Of a stretch of 43,515 nucleotides of DNA, positions 33,597-43,515 are shown one piece after another. The position numbers were made by a program, and so were the translations under genes. The stretch is from an uncultured Actinomycetes bacterium (lineage in GTDB: Bacteria; Actinomycetota; Acidimicrobiia; Acidimicrobiales; SZUA-35). The stretch covers positions 212,104 through 255,618 of the forward strand of contig CADEDH010000001.1 in the NCBI GenBank assembly GCA_902826025.1, given 5' to 3'. Each line of letters begins with the position of its first letter. Position 1 is the stretch's first letter. Under the pieces are notes generated by a model. The model made no database searches. It saw nothing but the letters and a program-made list of their open reading frames with translations, and had not been told where the DNA came from.

Positions 33597-34165
33597 TGGC
33601 GAGCGGCGGGACGTCCGGCGGGGCGGGCGAGGCGCAGGTCGAGACCTGGCCCAGCCGACCCCCTCACCTCATCGTGAACGTCACCGACCTGCGCAAACGG
33701 CTCGGCCAGCGCCGGGAGGTGGCGATCGAGGCCACGCTGGCCCGCCAGCAGGTGCTCGACACCCACACGGTGCGCACACCGGTGCGGGGCGAGATCATGG
33801 TGGAGTCGATCGAACGGGGGGTGTCGCTCCATGGTCACGTGTCGTTCGACTGGGAGGGAGACTGCCGCCGCTGCCTGGAGCCGGTGCGGGGCACCACCGA
33901 GATCGAGATCGACGAGATCTGTCAGGTCCACGCCCCGCCCGACGCCGACATCGTCGACTTCGACGGCGAGAAGATCGACCTGCTGCCCCTGATCAGGGAC
34001 GCCGTTGGCCTCTCGCTGCCGCTGGCTCCGCTGTGCCGGGAAGACTGCCCCGGCCCCGACCCCGATCGCTACCCGGCCCTCACCGAAGACGAGTTGGAGG
34101 AGGCGGACCAGGCACCGGCCCCCGATCCCCGCTGGGCCGCCCTCGACGGCCTCGATCTGAACTGA
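33596..34165 (+). CDS. DUF177/YceD-family protein
   Basis: 189 residues. ATG overlaps the previous stop (TGATG). The domain shows [40 protein letters not shown], the metal-type knuckle [60 protein letters not shown]. This pattern, in front of rpmF, is the usual setting of YceD proteins, which affect 23S rRNA/ribosome accumulation. The four Cys (CRRC and CREDC) are consistent with a zinc site. The C-terminal tail is disordered in appearance. Confidence 0.9.
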
Positions 34166-34602
34166 TGGCCTCCGACCCGTCCCTGGCCGGCCTCGAAGGC
34201 AGCCGGACCCAGGACAACCTGAAGACGGCCTTCGCCCGCGAGTCGGAGGCCAACCGCCGGTACCTGTGGTTCGCCGAGAAGGCCGACGTCGACGGCTTCC
34301 CCCACATCGCCGCCCTGTTCCGGGCGGTGGCCGAGGGCGAGACCGGCCATGCCCACGGCCACCTCGAGTACCTGGCTCTCCTGGGCGACCCGGCCACCGG
34401 AGAGCCCATCGGCGACACCGGAGACAACCTGCGCTCGGCCATCGCCAGCGAGACCTACGAGTCGGCCGAGATGTACCCCGCCTTCGCCCGGACCGCCCGC
34501 GAAGAGGGCTTCGACGAGATCGCCGAGTGGATGGAGACGCTGGCCCGGGCGGAGAAGGGCCAGGCCGACCGCCTGGCCCAGGGGCTCGATCAGCTCGATT
34601 GA
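34165..34602 (+). CDS. Rubrerythrin-like four-helix protein, one iron ligand altered
   Basis: 145 residues; start overlaps the DUF177 stop (TGATG). The four helices carry the diiron motifs [31 protein letters not shown] (E-x-x-H), [13 protein letters not shown] (E-x-x-E) and [12 protein letters not shown]. In rubrerythrins the last motif is E-K-x-H; here the codon is CAG, so Gln replaces His and one iron ligand is missing. There is no C-terminal rubredoxin domain. Peroxide reduction by the standard mechanism is therefore doubtful. It sits inside a locus (sepIVA, yceD, rpmF) that normally lacks it, so it is a lineage insertion. Confidence 0.85.
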
Positions 34603-37053: not shown

Positions 37054-37347
37054 ATGCCGGCAGAGACGCATATGGAGCGCAGCCCGCTTTCGCGTGACGA
37101 GATCGTCACGCTGGTCCGCGATCGCCTGTCCGACATCCTGGAGATCGAACCGGAGCAGATCAAGGAGGGAGACTCCTTCTCCGACGATCTCGACGCCGAT
37201 TCGCTGGCCCTGATCGAGCTGGTCGAGGCGCTTGAAGAGGAACTGGCCGATCGAACGGTGGGCTTCCGCATCGAGGACGAGGATCTTCAGGATCTGAAGA
37301 CCGTCCGTGATGCGGTCGACTACGTTCACAGCAGGGTTGGGGATTGA
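37054..37347 (+). CDS. acpP: Acyl carrier protein
   Basis: 97 residues, with an extended N-terminus (MPAETHMERSPLSRDE) before the usual carrier fold. The phosphopantetheine serine is in SDDLDADSLALIELVEALEEEL (D-S-L) followed by DRTVGFRIEDEDLQDLKTVRDAVDYV. GGAGGAG four to eight nt before the ATG is the strongest ribosome site of the cluster and decides the start. It carries growing acyl chains for fatty-acid synthesis and is the acyl donor for PlsX next to it. Its end overlaps the rnc start by about 11 nt. Confidence 0.93.
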   Translation: MPAETHMERSPLSRDEIVTLVRDRLSDILEIEPEQIKEGDSFSDDLDADSLALIELVEALEEELADRTVGFRIEDEDLQDLKTVRDAVDYVHSRVGD

Positions 37348-38074
37348 CCTGAGCGACGAGGGGCAGCTCGACGAATTCTGTGATCGCCTGGGTCACCACT
37401 TCGCCGACCCGGGCTTGTTGACGCTCGCCCTCACCCACCGTAGCTTCTGCGCCGAGCACCCCTCGAACAGCCCCAACGAGCGCCTCGAGTTCCTCGGAGA
37501 CTCGGTGCTCGGGTTGGTGGTGACCGACCACATCTACCGCAATTACCCTGAGCTGCCCGAGGGGCAGCTGGCCAAGCTCCGGGCGTCGGTGGTGAACACC
37601 GCCACGTTGGCTGAGCTGGGGCGTCGCCTCCGGGTGGGCCCTCTGCTCCGGTTGGGCAAGGGGGAAGACCAGTCGGGCGGCCGGGACAAGGAATCGATCC
37701 TGGCCGATGCCCTCGAAGCCCTGTTCGGGGCGGTCTACGTCGACGGGGGATGGGACGCCGCCCAGTCGGTGATCCTCACCCTCACCGCCGAGGCCATTCT
37801 CGAAGCAGCCGAGCAGCCCGGCAAGAAAGACTACAAGACCCAGCTCCAGGAGCTGACGGCCCGCCTCGCCCTCGGTACCCCGGTGTACCAGATCGACGGC
37901 TCCGGCCCCGACCACGACAAGCGGTTCACCGCCGTCACCCTGATCGACGGGGTGCCTCGCGGTCACGGTGCCGGCACGTCCAAGAAGCGAGCCGAGCAGG
38001 TGGCCGCCCGCTCCGCCTACTCGGCCGTTCTCACATCGGTTGCCAAAGAGGATGGGAGCAATGGTCAGACTTGA
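37337..38074 (+). CDS. rnc: Ribonuclease III
   Basis: 245 residues. The nuclease domain has ALTHRSFCAEHP, the signature NERLEFLGDSVLGLVVTDHIY and KESILADALEALFGAVYVDGG, which carry the acidic metal ligands; the C-terminal part KDYKTQLQELTARLALGTPVYQIDGSGPDHDKRFTAVTLIDG...AGTSKKRAEQVAARSA is a double-stranded-RNA-binding domain. It processes rRNA precursors and double-stranded RNA. The TTG at 37337 overlaps acpP and is chosen because it lies just before the conserved first helix, but the start is uncertain (ATG at 37310 is possible). Confidence 0.95.
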   Translation: MGIDLSDEGQLDEFCDRLGHHFADPGLLTLALTHRSFCAEHPSNSPNERLEFLGDSVLGLVVTDHIYRNYPELPEGQLAKLRASVVNTATLAELGRRLRVGPLLRLGKGEDQSGGRDKESILADALEALFGAVYVDGGWDAAQSVILTLTAEAILEAAEQPGKKDYKTQLQELTARLALGTPVYQIDGSGPDHDKRFTAVTLIDGVPRGHGAGTSKKRAEQVAARSAYSAVLTSVAKEDGSNGQT

Positions 38075-38900
38075 GCTGCCCGAGATCGAGACGCTGCGGC
38101 GGGACCTGGAGCGTGAGGCGGTCGGCAAGAAGATCAAGTCGGCGGAAGCCCTGGTCCTCAAGTCGTTGCCGCGCCACAAGACGCGCAAGAGCTTCGAAGA
38201 CAGCCTGGTCGGGGCGAAGATCCTGTCGTCCGAACGGCTGGGCCTGCTGATCCTGCTCCGGCTCGACAACGACCGCACGTTGGTCATCTCGCTTGGCGAG
38301 AACGGCCGGATCCTGCGAGCGGCCACCAAAGACAAGCACACCGACGACACGGTGGCCGTCATCTCGCTCGACAAAGCCGGTGACCTGCGGATCCTCGACT
38401 CGAACGGCACCAGCGCCATCCACGCTGTCCCCAACGAAGACCTGGCCTCAGTGCTCCCCGACCCCAGCCACATGGGCCTCGACCTGCACACCAAACCGGT
38501 GTCGTGGGTGGAGTTCGGGCGGTGGGTGCTGAGCAAGCGCATGCCGCTCAAGCTCCTGCTGACCGACGAGAGCGTGTTCGTCGGCATCGGCGAGATCTAC
38601 TCCAACGAGATCCTGTTCGACGCCGGCCTCCGCCACGACCGGATGTGCACCGAGTTGTCGACCCAGGAGATCCGCCGGCTCTACCGGGCCGTGGTGGGGA
38701 TCCTGCACGATGCCATCAAGTACGGGGGCACCTCGCTGGCCGATCGGCCGTTCATGGACCTCACCGGCAAGGCCGGCGAGTACAACGAGCACCTGAGCGT
38801 CTACGGCCGGGCCGGCGAGCTGAGCCCCCGCAGCCGGGTGCCCATCCAGAAGACGAGCTTCAAGCACCAGGTCGTCTACTACTGCAACACCCAGGTCTGA
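38061..38900 (+). CDS. Formamidopyrimidine-DNA glycosylase homologue without catalytic residues
   Basis: 279 residues in the usual fpg position between rnc and smc. The fold is recognisable: ELPEIETLRRDLEREAVGKKI, TLVISLGENGRIL, GIGEIYSNEILFDAGLR, and KYGGTSLADRPFMDLTGKAGEYNEHLSVYGRAGE. But the chain starts MVRLELPE, not MPELPE, so the nucleophile Pro is gone; the GNIY Asn is Glu (E178); the RRGKY Lys is replaced (RLGLL); HLGM reads SLGEN; and the zinc finger keeps only one Cys (YYCNTQV, C275; Ser at the first pair). It cannot work as a glycosylase/lyase by the known mechanism. GAGGA and GGGAG lie just before the ATG. It may bind DNA or act as a protein partner. Confidence 0.85.
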   Translation: MVRLELPEIETLRRDLEREAVGKKIKSAEALVLKSLPRHKTRKSFEDSLVGAKILSSERLGLLILLRLDNDRTLVISLGENGRILRAATKDKHTDDTVAVISLDKAGDLRILDSNGTSAIHAVPNEDLASVLPDPSHMGLDLHTKPVSWVEFGRWVLSKRMPLKLLLTDESVFVGIGEIYSNEILFDAGLRHDRMCTELSTQEIRRLYRAVVGILHDAIKYGGTSLADRPFMDLTGKAGEYNEHLSVYGRAGELSPRSRVPIQKTSFKHQVVYYCNTQV

Positions 38901-38969: not shown

Positions 38970-39308
38970 ATGTCGACGTTCGCCGTGCTGGCCGAACCGA
39001 ACCGGAGGCTGATCCTCGATCTCCTCCGTTCGGGCGACCGCACCGTCACCGACCTCGTGGCCGCCCTGCCGTTGGCCCAGCCCACGGTGTCCAAGCACCT
39101 GAAGCTGCTGCGGGAGGCGGGCCTGGTGCAGGTACAGCCCGATGCCCAACGGCGGGTGTACCGGCTCCGGGCCGAAGGTCTCCAGGAGGTCGACGCCTGG
39201 CTGGCGCCCTATCGGAGGTTCTGGGCCCAGCGGCTCGACGCTCTGGAGGCCCGCCTGGACGCGATCGAAGACGACGGGAGCGGCGCCGACCAAGGAGAAC
39301 AGATCTGA
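38970..39308 (+). CDS. ArsR-family winged-helix repressor
   Basis: 112 residues. Winged-helix core FAVLAEPNRRLILDLLRSGDRTVTDLVAALPLAQPTVSKHLKLLREAGLVQVQPDAQRRVYRLRAEGLQEVDAWLAPYRRFW. No metal-binding Cys box (ELCVCDL) is present, so it probably senses an organic ligand or stress, as the ArsR/SRPBCC pairs do. The C-terminal helix LDALEARLDAIEDDG is for dimerisation. It is translationally coupled (TGATG) to the next gene and should bind the palindrome at its own promoter. Confidence 0.9.
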   Translation: MSTFAVLAEPNRRLILDLLRSGDRTVTDLVAALPLAQPTVSKHLKLLREAGLVQVQPDAQRRVYRLRAEGLQEVDAWLAPYRRFWAQRLDALEARLDAIEDDGSGADQGEQI

Positions 39309-39844
39309 TGACCGTGGATGCCACCCAACGGATGGGCGAACTGCTGCGAGACGGAGACCGCGTCGGCCTCCGCTTCGTCAGGACCCTGCGGCACCCGCCG
39401 GAGAAGGTGTGGCGGGCCCTGACCGAGGCCGACCAGCTGGCCCATTGGATGCCGGTATACCTCGATGGCGAGCTGGGCCCGGGGGCCGAGATCCAGGCCG
39501 TGTTCTGGCCCGAGGTGGTGGCCCGATACGGCATCGACGAGGCGGCGCTACCGGCCGAGATCCTGGTGTGGGACCCGCCCCGGGTGCTGGAGTGGCGTTG
39601 GGACACCGACGTGCTCCGCTGGGAGTTGGCCCTGGTCGGCGGGGGTACGGAGCTCACCCTGGTCACCTGGATCGCCCGCTCGGGCCCGCCGCCCTACCAG
39701 GTCGGCGCCGGCTACCACCTGTGCCTGTCGCACCTGGTGGAGCTGGTCGACACCGGCACGGCCACCTCGGTGGCGGCTGACGATCCCGCCCCCTACGAGG
39801 AGCGCTACGCCGAGGCCTGGGGTACCACCTGGGACCCGTCGTGA
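39308..39844 (+). CDS. SRPBCC/AHSA1-type protein
   Basis: 178 residues. Start-type hot-dog/helix-grip fold: RVGLRFVRTLRHPPEKVWRALTEADQLAHWMPVYLDGELGPGAEIQAVFWPEVVARYG, EILVWDPPRVLEWRWDTDVLRWELALVGGGTELTLVTWIARSG, YHLCLSHLVELVDTG. AHSA1-like proteins bind hydrophobic ligands in a deep pocket. Coupled to the ArsR gene (TGATG), it is the likely ligand partner or target of that regulator; this pairing is common in Actinobacteria and in CDP-type ArsR systems. The substrate is unknown. Confidence 0.88.
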   Translation: MTVDATQRMGELLRDGDRVGLRFVRTLRHPPEKVWRALTEADQLAHWMPVYLDGELGPGAEIQAVFWPEVVARYGIDEAALPAEILVWDPPRVLEWRWDTDVLRWELALVGGGTELTLVTWIARSGPPPYQVGAGYHLCLSHLVELVDTGTATSVAADDPAPYEERYAEAWGTTWDPS

Positions 39845-39945: not shown

Positions 39946-42900
39946 GTGTACCTCAAAGCGCTGACGATCAAGGGATTCAAATCGTTCGCCGACCCGGCCA
40001 CCCTGGCCCTGGAGCCGGGGATCACCGTGGTCGTGGGGCCGAATGGCAGCGGCAAGTCGAACGTGGTCGATGCCATGGCCTGGGTGTTGGGGGCTCAGGC
40101 CCCCACCGCCGTGCGGTCCCAGAAGATGGACGACGTGATCTTCGCCGGCACCGCCTCCCGCAAGGCGCTGGGCCGGGCCGAGGTGGCGCTCACCATCGAC
40201 AACGCCGATGGCCAGCTCCCGATCGAGTTCAACGAGGTCACGATCTCCCGCACCCTGTTCCGTTCGGGCGACAGCGACTACCAGATCAACGGCGTGTCGT
40301 GCCGCCTGCTCGACATCCAGGAGCTCCTGAGCGACTCCGGGGTCGGCCGCCAACAGCACATCATCGTGAGCCAGGGACGCATCGACGACGTCCTCAACGC
40401 CAAGCCCGAGGAGCGGCGCTCGATCATCGAGGAGGCGGCCGGCGTCCTCAAGTACCGCAAGCGCAAGGAGCGGGCCGAGCGGCGCCTCACCGCCACCGAG
40501 GAGAACCTCCACCGCCTGCAGGACCTGCTGCGCGAGGTCCGCCGCCAGGTCCGCCCGCTGGAGAAGCAGGCCGCCGCCGCCCGCCGCCACGACTCGCTGG
40601 TGACCGAGCTGACCACGCTCAAGATCCACCTGGCCGGCCGGGAGCTGCGCTCCCTGCGGGCCCAGCTGGAGACGGCCCACCGCCAGCGGCTGGAGGCCAA
40701 CGACCGGGAGCGTACGATCACCAGCCAGCTGGCCTCGCTCGACGCCGCCGTGCTGCGCGACGAGGCCCGCCTGGCCGCCCTCGGGGCGTCCGACATCGCC
40801 GACGTGGCCAGCCGGGCCCGCGCCCTGCGGGAGCGGATCAAGGGCCAGCACAACGTGATCGGGGAGCGCCGGCGCCGCCTGGAGGGTGAGCTCCAGGCCG
40901 CCGTCGACGACGGGCTGGTGTCGAACCTGGAGGCCGAGTCGGCCCGGCTGGCCCAGGAGCTGCTGACGGCCGAGGCCGACGCCCGCCGGCTGAAGCCCGA
41001 GTTCGAGCGCCTGGCCCAGGCCGAGACCCTGCTCTCGTCCGAGCAGCTCACGTTCGACACCGAATGGGGCGACGAGCTGGCCCCCAAGCCCACCCGGGCC
41101 CCCGAGCTGCGGGCCGAGCTGGCCGCCCTGGGCAAGGCCGGGCAGCGGAGCCAGGCCGAGCTGCAGCGCCTGGGCTCCGAGCTGCAGGCGTCGGCCGCCC
41201 GGCGCCAGCGGGTGGAGGCCGAGGCGGCTCAGGCCACTCAGACTCTGGCCCAGTTGGCCACCGAGCGCCCGGAGCTCGACCGCCAGGCCGCCGCCGCCCA
41301 GCAGGAGCGGCGAACGGCCGAGACGTCGGTCACCGAGCTGACCGAGCAGCGGCGGGAAGCCGACGCCGAAGCCCACCGGTGGGCCGCCCGGCGCGATGCC
41401 CTCCGCCAGGCCCTCGACGCCGCCCGCTCCGCCGCCGGCGCCACCGCCCTGGCCGACCAGGCCGGATTCCTGGGCGTGCTGCTGGATCTGGTGGCCATCG
41501 ATGAGGGTTGGGAGTCGGCGGTGGAAGCGGCCGCGGGCGAGGCCCTCCAGGCCGTCGTGATCGACAATCCCCGCAACGGGGCGGCTGCCCTGGCCGCCCT
41601 GGAGGCCAATGACCTGGCCGGCGCCGTGCTGGCTCTGGGCCGGGGCAGCGGATCAGTTCCCCCGGTCGCCGCCCCCCAGGGGGCCGTCCGCCTCCGGGAC
41701 CGGGTCCGGGCCCGGCGTGACGATGTGAACGGGCTGCTCGACGCCCTGTTCGCCTCGGCCGTGGTGGCCGATGGCACCTGGCGCCAGGCCATGGAGGTGG
41801 CCATGGGCCACCCCGAGCTGGTGGTCGTCACCCGCCACGGCGACCGCTTCGGCCCTGCCGGCTGGCGGATCGGGCTGTCGGGCACGGGGGCCACCGGCGC
41901 CGCCCTGGAGGAGGCCGACGGCAAGGCCACCTTCGCCAAGGGTGAGGCCGAGCGGGTGGCCGCCGCCCTGCAGGCGGCCCAGGCCGCCGCCCGCGACGCC
42001 GTCAACCGCAGCCGCTCGATCGAAGACCGGCGCCGCCAGGCAGCCCAGGCCCAGGAGCGGGCCGCCGGCCTGCGAGACCGGAGCACGGCCCAGCTGCGCG
42101 ACTTCGCCGGCGACACCACCCGGCTGGAGGAGCGGCGGGCCGAGCTGGCGGCCCAGGCCCGGGCCGACGAGGACCGGGCGGCCCGGCTGCGGGCCGAGCT
42201 GCCGGCGGTGGAGAACGAGGAGGCCGAGTACCTCAAGCGGGTGGAGGCCCTGAGCCACTCCCGCACCTCGCTGGAGGAACGCACCCGGGGCCTGGCCCAG
42301 GCCCGCCGCGACCTGGAGGTCAAGGCGGCATCGATCGACGCCCGCCAGGAGCAGCTGGCCAACCGCCGGGCCGAGACCGAGACCCGCCTGGAGCGCCTGG
42401 TGGGGGAGCGGGAGCGGGCCCGGATCCGTCGGGAGGCGCTGGAGGCGGCGCTGGGGGCCGTCGACGCCCTGGCCCAGCGCCTGAGCGGCCTCGGCGCCCG
42501 GGTGGCGGCCTGGATCGAGGTGCTGGAAGCCGAGCACCGGGCCCAGTCGGAGGCGGCCCGCCAGGTGTCGGCCGAGCTGACGGCCCAGCGCAGCGAGCGC
42601 CAGGCCGCCGAAAAGGAGCTGGTGGAGGTACGGGAGCGGCGGAGCCGGGTGGAGCTGGGCGAGGCCGAGAACCGGGTGAAGCTGGAGGCCATAACCGAGG
42701 CCCTGCGCCGCGAGCTCGACACCGAGCCGGCCGTGGCCCTGGCCACCGAGCTACCCGAGATCGAGAACGGGGCCAGCCCCGAGGCCCGGGTGCGCGACCT
42801 GGAACGGGAGCTCAAGCTGCTCGGCCCGATCAACCCGCTGGCCCTGGAGGAGTTCGAGGCGCTCAAGGAGCGTCACGACTTCCTCGACGCCCAGCTCGAC

Positions 42901-43515
42901 GACGTGAAGACCGCCCGGCGCGACCTGAACCAGCTGATCCGCTCGATCGACGAGGAGATAGTCCAGGTCTTCTCGGCCGCCTTCGCCGACGTGTCGCAGA
43001 ACTTCGTGTTCCTGTTCAGCGGGCTGTTCCCCGGGGGCAAGGGCGGGATCACGCTCACCAACCCCGACGACCTGCTCAACTGCGGCGTCGAGGTGGAAGC
43101 CAAGCCGTCGGGCAAGAACGTGAAGAAGCTGTCGCTGCTGTCGGGCGGGGAGCGGAGCCTGGTGGCTCTGGCCTTCCTGTTCGCCGTGTTCCGGTCCCGC
43201 CCGTCGCCGTTCTACGTGATGGACGAGGTGGAGGCGGCCCTCGACGACGTGAACCTCAGCCGCTTCCTGGCCCTGCTGGAAGAGTTCCGCAAGGAGGCCC
43301 AGCTGATCGTCGTGAGCCACCAGAAGCGGACGATGGAAGCGGCCGACGTGCTCTATGGCGTGTCGATGAAGCCCGGCGGTTCGTCCAAGGTGGTCAGCGA
43401 GAAGGTCCAGGTGCGCAAGCCGGTCGACCGCCCGATGATCGACCTGCGCGACGACCACGTCGGCCCCGTGGCCCTGGCCGACAACACCGACACCCCGGCC
43501 GACGAGGCCGCCGCC
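39946..43515 (+). CDS. smc: Chromosome segregation ATPase SMC, partial
   Basis: At least 1190 residues; the end lies outside the window. N-terminal head: KALTIKGFKSFADPATLALEPGITVVVGPNGSGKSNVVDAM, with Walker A GPNGSGKS at 31-38. Coiled coil about 170-500; hinge near 508-640 (FLGVLLDLVAIDEGWESAVEAAAGEALQAVVIDN); second coil to about 930; C-terminal head with signature KKLSLLSGGERSLVALAFLFA (near 1062) and Walker B PFYVMDEVEAALDDVN (near 1091). It forms the ring that organises the chromosome with ScpA and ScpB. The GTG is chosen because MYLKALTIKGFKSF is the universal start. The extra residues after the Walker B domain (PSGGSSKVVSEKV...ADEAAA) form a tail of about 60 residues, probably longer than usual. 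Confidence 0.95.
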   Translation, partial: MYLKALTIKGFKSFADPATLALEPGITVVVGPNGSGKSNVVDAMAWVLGAQAPTAVRSQKMDDVIFAGTASRKALGRAEVALTIDNADGQLPIEFNEVTISRTLFRSGDSDYQINGVSCRLLDIQELLSDSGVGRQQHIIVSQGRIDDVLNAKPEERRSIIEEAAGVLKYRKRKERAERRLTATEENLHRLQDLLREVRRQVRPLEKQAAAARRHDSLVTELTTLKIHLAGRELRSLRAQLETAHRQRLEANDRERTITSQLASLDAAVLRDEARLAALGASDIADVASRARALRERIKGQHNVIGERRRRLEGELQAAVDDGLVSNLEAESARLAQELLTAEADARRLKPEFERLAQAETLLSSEQLTFDTEWGDELAPKPTRAPELRAELAALGKAGQRSQAELQRLGSELQASAARRQRVEAEAAQATQTLAQLATERPELDRQAAAAQQERRTAETSVTELTEQRREADAEAHRWAARRDALRQALDAARSAAGATALADQAGFLGVLLDLVAIDEGWESAVEAAAGEALQAVVIDNPRNGAAALAALEANDLAGAVLALGRGSGSVPPVAAPQGAVRLRDRVRARRDDVNGLLDALFASAVVADGTWRQAMEVAMGHPELVVVTRHGDRFGPAGWRIGLSGTGATGAALEEADGKATFAKGEAERVAAALQAAQAAARDAVNRSRSIEDRRRQAAQAQERAAGLRDRSTAQLRDFAGDTTRLEERRAELAAQARADEDRAARLRAELPAVENEEAEYLKRVEALSHSRTSLEERTRGLAQARRDLEVKAASIDARQEQLANRRAETETRLERLVGERERARIRREALEAALGAVDALAQRLSGLGARVAAWIEVLEAEHRAQSEAARQVSAELTAQRSERQAAEKELVEVRERRSRVELGEAENRVKLEAITEALRRELDTEPAVALATELPEIENGASPEARVRDLERELKLLGPINPLALEEFEALKERHDFLDAQLDDVKTARRDLNQLIRSIDEEIVQVFSAAFADVSQNFVFLFSGLFPGGKGGITLTNPDDLLNCGVEVEAKPSGKNVKKLSLLSGGERSLVALAFLFAVFRSRPSPFYVMDEVEAALDDVNLSRFLALLEEFRKEAQLIVVSHQKRTMEAADVLYGVSMKPGGSSKVVSEKVQVRKPVDRPMIDLRDDHVGPVALADNTDTPADEAAA

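What the first reader, a model, noticed from the sequence alone, without database searches (positions are those of the whole stretch)
38061..38900. Fpg homologue that has lost its catalytic proline, lysine, asparagine and zinc finger
Every residue I can check for formamidopyrimidine glycosylase activity is replaced, yet the protein keeps full length, a good ribosome site and its conserved place between rnc and smc. It may have been recruited for a different DNA-binding or RNA-processing role rather than being in decay.
Basis: partly seen in the sequence, partly recalled or inferred. Interest (0 to 1): 0.7.

Follow-up and report, generated by a model that had tools for sequence, protein, structure and literature searches.

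The report
Dead DNA-repair enzyme kept by selection
This gene descends from the DNA-repair enzyme Fpg but has lost nearly all of its catalytic and DNA-gripping residues, and scores of related bacteria have kept the disarmed protein intact while a second, normal Fpg elsewhere in the genome usually does the repair, which points to a second, non-repair job that has not been described.

Summary
ORF 38061-38900 (+), 279 aa, has the full Fpg fold (AlphaFold pLDDT 94; best match MutM, Z 32.6, rmsd 2.5 Å) but lacks the catalytic Pro1, Lys57, the phosphate-binding His71/Asn168/Arg258, the Met/Arg/Phe intercalation triad and three of four zinc cysteines. Only Glu2 of the catalytic set remains. It is not decay. 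All 32 same-family genomes in which the rnc-locus orthologue was found share the loss. 78 distinct Zn-less and 16 partly degraded orthologues occur across Acidimicrobiales. dN/dS is 0.03-0.26, and pN/pS matches neighbouring rnc. The loss is nested in canonical Fpgs with graded intermediates, and probably recurred in other Actinomycetota classes.

Loss goes with replacement. 0 of 38 genomes with an intact rnc-locus Fpg carry a second full Fpg; 84 of 96 with a degraded copy do, including the window's genome. Best reading: a pseudo-glycosylase retained for an ancestral non-catalytic role, probably protein-protein, in the rnc-smc operon. The partner is unknown.

The parts
38061..38900 (+). Fpg-fold pseudo-glycosylase gene (279 aa)
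38046..38051 (+). plausible Shine-Dalgarno AAGAGG, 9 nt before ATG 38061; in-frame alternative ATG at 38052
   Evidence: sequence
38070..38075 (+). codons of L4 (replaces catalytic Pro1) and E5 (retained Glu2)
38244..38246 (+). codon of L62 (replaces Lys57)
38289..38300 (+). codons S77-E80: phosphate-binding His71 -> S77, intercalating Met -> E80
38403..38411 (+). codons N115-T117: intercalating Arg/Phe replaced
38517..38738 (+). H2TH domain (residues 153-226), retained as a domain; Asn168 -> E178 at 38592-38594; rnc-locus signature residues R205 (38673-38675) and R209 (38685-38687)
38823..38897 (+). former zinc finger: S255, S258, Q270 (Arg258 site), C275, last Cys deleted; beta-hairpin still predicted
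37307..38074 (+). rnc, ribonuclease III, overlapping upstream neighbour
38970..39308 (+). ArsR-type regulator between pseudo-fpg and smc
39308..39844 (+). SRPBCC/AHSA1-type gene, with the ArsR gene between pseudo-fpg and smc
39946..43515 (+). smc (runs off the window)

Best explanation
The gene is the orthologue of the actinobacterial fpg that normally sits between rnc and smc. SHOWN: the residues of the glycosylase machinery have been replaced (nucleophile, lysine, phosphate clamp, base-intercalating wedge, zinc finger) while the fold (predicted), frame, operon position and purifying selection are kept, and a second canonical Fpg elsewhere is present in most genomes with the degraded form and in none sampled with the intact form. 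INFERRED: the ancestral rnc-locus Fpg already had two jobs, lesion repair and a second job carried by the folded body of the protein. Once another Fpg took over repair, the original lost repair and DNA binding and kept only the second job (subfunctionalisation). The charge reversal and the loss of the DNA clamp make that job most likely protein-protein: a scaffold or regulatory partner of a product of the operon (RNase III, SMC) or of the repair/replication machinery. Candidate contact residues are those kept in both intact and dead rnc-locus proteins but absent from the replacement Fpgs: W149, R205, R209, R259.
For: Loss pattern all-or-graded: 39/39 canonical rnc-locus Fpgs keep all tabulated residues; 78 Zn-less and 16 partial forms do not. 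Tree with diagnostic columns removed: the lost forms are nested in canonical Fpgs, the basal member L040 keeping Pro1, Lys57 and zinc finger, zinc lost last. Purifying selection comparable to rnc. rnc on the same strand upstream in 134/134; smc co-directional wherever it was found. Second equivalog Fpg: canonical 0/22, dead 56/63, partial 7/9 with the two lacking it (G041, G093) among the least degraded; Fisher p 1.7e-14 on the 22/62 comparison; repeated outside the order, 0/16 canonical and 21/24 degraded. pI/net charge shift in both main losing groups. Signature residues W149, R205, R209, R259 at 0.94-1.00 in intact and degraded rnc-locus proteins, 0-0.12 in replacement copies.
Against: No partner, phenotype or expression datum exists; the protein-protein step is by elimination. 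The signature residues could be structural, or inherited without function. Species are not independent, so the Fisher p overstates the evidence; the AU test against a single origin of all losses is borderline (p 0.0505). 7 of 63 dead genomes show no over-cut-off second Fpg (some are incomplete assemblies). The window copy is evolving about 2.5 times faster than its sister while rnc is not, and has changed the otherwise near-invariant FTQG motif to LDKA, so constraint may be slackening in this particular lineage.
Confidence: 0.55

Rival explanations
1. Nucleic-acid-binding recruit: the H2TH body binds DNA or RNA in a new mode, e.g. a lesion or structure sensor without excision, or an RNase III co-factor.
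For: H2TH domain retained; rnc neighbour; conserved Arg on the long H2TH helix (R205, R206, R209); window copy pI 8.0.
Against: Lys57, His71, Asn168 and Arg258 phosphate contacts lost, Asn168 often to Asp/Glu, triad lost; family pI about 6.
Confidence: 0.22
2. New enzyme: the old pocket, with retained Glu2 (E5) and other conserved residues, catalyses a different reaction.
For: E2 kept in 74/78 dead forms; overall architecture predicted intact.
Against: No new invariant polar set replaces the lost residues: the substituting positions are mostly variable. E2 may simply cap the first helix.
Confidence: 0.1
3. Residual glycosylase/AP-lyase using another amine.
For: Some intact-looking Fpgs in other classes start Met-Glu with no Pro1, so the nucleophile can perhaps vary; G041 keeps Pro1 and Lys57 and has no second Fpg.
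Against: In the window protein the N-terminal amine is displaced by extra residues, Lys57 is gone, and DNA grip and wedge are gone too.
Confidence: 0.05
4. Relic kept only for operon architecture (translational coupling/spacer) or slow decay.
For: 14-nt overlap with rnc; accelerated window lineage.
Against: dN/dS 0.03-0.26 across 49 dead pairs and intact frames; a spacer role would not conserve amino acids.
Confidence: 0.05

Closest known systems
Bacterial Fpg/MutM (Bst MutM 1R2Y/2F5Q, E. coli 1K82)
   Same: Descent, full-length fold, H2TH, locus rnc-fpg-smc (as in canonical order-mates), Glu2
   Different: No Pro1, Lys57, His71, Asn168, Arg258, intercalation triad or zinc finger; acidic family pI; below the NCBIfam equivalog cut-off
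Zincless-finger Fpg/Nei members (e.g. plant/fungal Nei-type, NEIL1, mimivirus enzymes; PMC3188539)
   Same: No zinc ligands, beta-hairpin predicted in place of the finger
   Different: Those are active enzymes in which the zincless finger plays the same role; here the phosphate-binding Arg site is Q270
Mycobacterial Rv0944 (Mtu-Fpg2; PMC2734929)
   Same: Actinobacterial Fpg homologue lacking the catalytic N-terminus in M. tuberculosis
   Different: Truncated in M. tuberculosis and complete in M. smegmatis; here full length, disarmed by substitutions, and the loss is shared across many families
Pseudoenzymes in general
   Same: Fold kept, catalytic residues lost, purifying selection, active paralogue usually present
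   Different: I found no published Fpg/Nei-superfamily case in the open papers searched

Membership tests
Fpg/MutM enzyme (formamidopyrimidine-DNA glycosylase) | Fpg/Nei fold and Pfam N-terminal domain | tested here: met
Fpg/MutM enzyme (formamidopyrimidine-DNA glycosylase) | NCBIfam fpg equivalog cut-off (TIGR00577, 203.3 bits) | tested here: not met
   155.9 bits
Fpg/MutM enzyme (formamidopyrimidine-DNA glycosylase) | N-terminal catalytic Pro1 | tested here: not met
   L4, preceded by M-V-R
Fpg/MutM enzyme (formamidopyrimidine-DNA glycosylase) | Glu2 | tested here: met
   E5
Fpg/MutM enzyme (formamidopyrimidine-DNA glycosylase) | Lys57 and phosphate contacts His71, Asn168, Arg258 | tested here: not met
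   L62, S77, E178, Q270
Fpg/MutM enzyme (formamidopyrimidine-DNA glycosylase) | Met/Arg/Phe intercalation triad | tested here: not met
   E80, N115, T117
Fpg/MutM enzyme (formamidopyrimidine-DNA glycosylase) | Cys4 zinc finger | tested here: not met
   S255, S258, C275, last Cys deleted
Fpg/MutM enzyme (formamidopyrimidine-DNA glycosylase) | H2TH domain | tested here: met
   PF06831 54 bits, cut-off 34.7; Asn168 inside it is replaced
Fpg/MutM enzyme (formamidopyrimidine-DNA glycosylase) | Excision of oxoG/FapyG and AP-lyase activity | not testable with these tools
   needs assay
Pseudoenzyme | Loss of catalytic residues with purifying selection on the rest | tested here: met
Zincless-finger Fpg/Nei | Phosphate-binding Arg kept on the beta-hairpin that replaces the zinc finger | tested here: not met
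   Q270 in the window; R in 25 of 78 dead forms

The most novel reading that the evidence does not exclude
The rnc-smc Fpg of many Actinomycetota is a bifunctional protein whose second, still unknown, non-catalytic job is important enough that more than one lineage discarded the repair activity and kept only that job, giving recurrent pseudo-glycosylases that may link oxidative-damage repair genes to RNase III or SMC chromosome biology.
Probability: 0.4. Interest if true: 0.8.

Novelty: new variant of a known kind. Interest (0 to 1): 0.62.

Why it matters
A textbook repair enzyme kept as a dead shell across a bacterial order, with graded intermediates, probable repeat loss elsewhere and a visible replacement enzyme, is a natural separation-of-function experiment. 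It implies that ordinary actinobacterial Fpg at this locus may have an overlooked second function, testable in tractable species with an intact rnc-fpg-smc operon. It also warns that annotation as 'fpg' by domain hit would credit these genes with a repair activity that they almost certainly lack.

Tried and rejected
Sequencing or assembly error and wrong start: rejected; 31 further genomes in the family share the changes and both possible starts leave no N-terminal Pro. Decay: rejected by dN/dS and intact frames. Literature searches for Fpg pseudoenzymes, Acidimicrobiia Fpg, and rnc/smc/fpg operon function returned nothing on this (open-access papers only). Mapping conserved residues on the model surface was not possible because model coordinates are not exposed. 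The AlphaFold model of a canonical relative was only middling (pLDDT 81.7, 16 rows) and was not used. A GGAG-N4-ATG pattern scan did not mark this start; the ribosome site proposed is AAGAGG at 9 nt, read by eye. A single ancient loss for all degraded forms: disfavoured by 46 log-likelihood units but not formally rejected (AU p 0.0505).

Full report
What is there. The ORF at 38061-38900 (+) is exactly as described: 279 aa, overlapping the end of rnc by 14 nt, with a plausible AAGAGG ribosome site. Pfam finds the Fpg N-terminal and H2TH domains but no zinc-finger domain, while the genome's other Fpg has all three. NCBIfam's fpg model scores 155.9 against a cut-off of 203.3. AlphaFold2 gives a confident full-length model (pLDDT 94.1, pTM 0.89) whose nearest solved structures are MutM (1R2Y/2F5Q; Foldseek E about 1e-26; Z 32.6, 2.5 Å over 271 residues). 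So the predicted fold is intact.

What is missing. In alignment with order-mates: Pro1->L4 (with M-V-R in front), Lys57->L62, His71->S77, the Met/Arg/Phe wedge->E80/N115/T117, Asn168->E178, Arg258->Q270, three zinc cysteines lost. Glu2 (E5) and the third zinc Cys (C275) remain. The roles of these residues are established knowledge of the Fpg/Nei family (E. coli Fpg numbering, from memory; the equivalent Bst MutM residues N174, R112, F114, K60 and the zinc cysteines are discussed in PMC3188539).

It is not private to this genome. 61 of 61 related genomes contain Fpg-type genes, and the rnc-locus orthologue was recovered from 32 same-family genomes (the window's included), 50-79% identical to the window protein, all disarmed. 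Named records place them in Acidimicrobiales/Acidimicrobiia, among them MedAcidi-G2B, AG-410-I20 and SZUA-35. Among 133 distinct full rnc-adjacent proteins, 39 are canonical with every tabulated residue 39/39; 16 have lost wedge and/or catalytic residues but keep four zinc cysteines; 78 have lost the finger as well. rnc is co-directional upstream in 134 of 134, and smc lies downstream on the same strand wherever it was found.

How it arose. On a tree built without the diagnostic columns, the lost forms make one clade nested in canonical rnc-locus Fpgs, plus one separate case (L152/L153). The basal member L040 keeps Pro1, Lys57 and the finger but has lost Met, Phe and Asn168; intermediate branches lose Lys57 and Pro1; the finger goes last. 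Outside the order, further degraded rnc-locus Fpgs appear in several families of other classes, two of which lost zinc ligands separately (L229, L243). The wider tree needs four changes. A single origin of all is 46 log units worse but only borderline by the AU test (p 0.0505), so multiple origins are likely rather than proven.

It is under selection. In 49 dead-form pairs the median pN/pS is 0.199, against 0.190 for rnc in the same loci; individual dN/dS values run from about 0.03 to 0.26 (Nei-Gojobori, synonymous sites near saturation in some pairs). The window copy is a caution: 24-26 unique changes against 9-11 in its sister with most outgroups, rnc even, and the near-invariant FTQG motif changed to LDKA.

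Replacement. With the curated fpg equivalog model, genomes whose rnc-locus gene is canonical have no second hit over the cut-off (0 of 22); those with a dead gene usually do, elsewhere in the genome (55 of 62, plus G048); partial forms 7 of 9, and the two without (G041, G093) are among the least degraded. The pattern repeats outside the order: 0 of 16 canonical, 21 of 24 degraded. Sums: 0 of 38 and 84 of 96. The window's genome has its canonical Fpg at C14:43987-44817 plus two further Fpg/Nei-type genes on C3 and C6.

How it most likely works. Shown: the catalytic residues and the known DNA clamp are gone; the protein is maintained; repair appears to have moved to another gene. Inferred: a second, older, non-catalytic function. 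Two lines point there. Median net charge falls from +7/+10 in canonical forms to -2/-7 in degraded forms in both main losing groups, so nucleic-acid binding looks shed rather than reshaped. And a set of residues (W149, R205, R209, R259) is near-invariant in intact and degraded rnc-locus proteins but absent from the replacement Fpgs, as expected if a shared function pre-dates the loss. A protein-protein role is the simplest reading; the partner is unknown.

Comparison with the known. It is an orthologue of Fpg by descent, fold and locus, but not an Fpg enzyme: it fails the equivalog cut-off and most defining residues. Zincless fingers are known in active Nei/NEIL1-type enzymes (PMC3188539), and Rv0944 of M. 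tuberculosis is a truncated homologue without the catalytic N-terminus (PMC2734929). I found no report of a full-length, selected, catalytically stripped Fpg lineage in the papers searched.

Noticed in passing
L211, L212, L215, L222, L223, L248-L252 (families f73, f107, f115 of other Actinomycetota classes): Otherwise canonical rnc-locus Fpgs in which the start codon appears to sit directly before Glu2 (Met-Glu-Leu-Pro-Glu), so the catalytic Pro1 is absent while Lys57, triad, Asn168 and zinc finger are intact and no second Fpg over the cut-off was found in those genomes searched; an N-terminal Met amine could be the nucleophile.
   Followed up: partly
38970-39844: An ArsR-type regulator and an SRPBCC/AHSA1-type gene lie between the pseudo-fpg and smc in the window; in most relatives smc follows within about 10-200 bp.
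   Followed up: partly
38367-38378: The window protein has LDKA where nearly all the family has FTQG (residues 103-106), part of a roughly 2.5-fold lineage-specific acceleration not seen in rnc.
   Followed up: yes
L229, L243: Two degraded Fpgs outside Acidimicrobiales lost zinc cysteines separately (to S, D or A), while their close relatives keep all four.
   Followed up: partly
L056:2485-3466: A canonical rnc-locus Fpg is split into two overlapping frames in genome G047, either a frameshift or a sequencing error.
   Followed up: no
34165-34602: A rubrerythrin-like reading frame appears to lie between the DUF177/yceD-like gene and the rpmF/plsX genes (by eye from the translation only).
   Followed up: no
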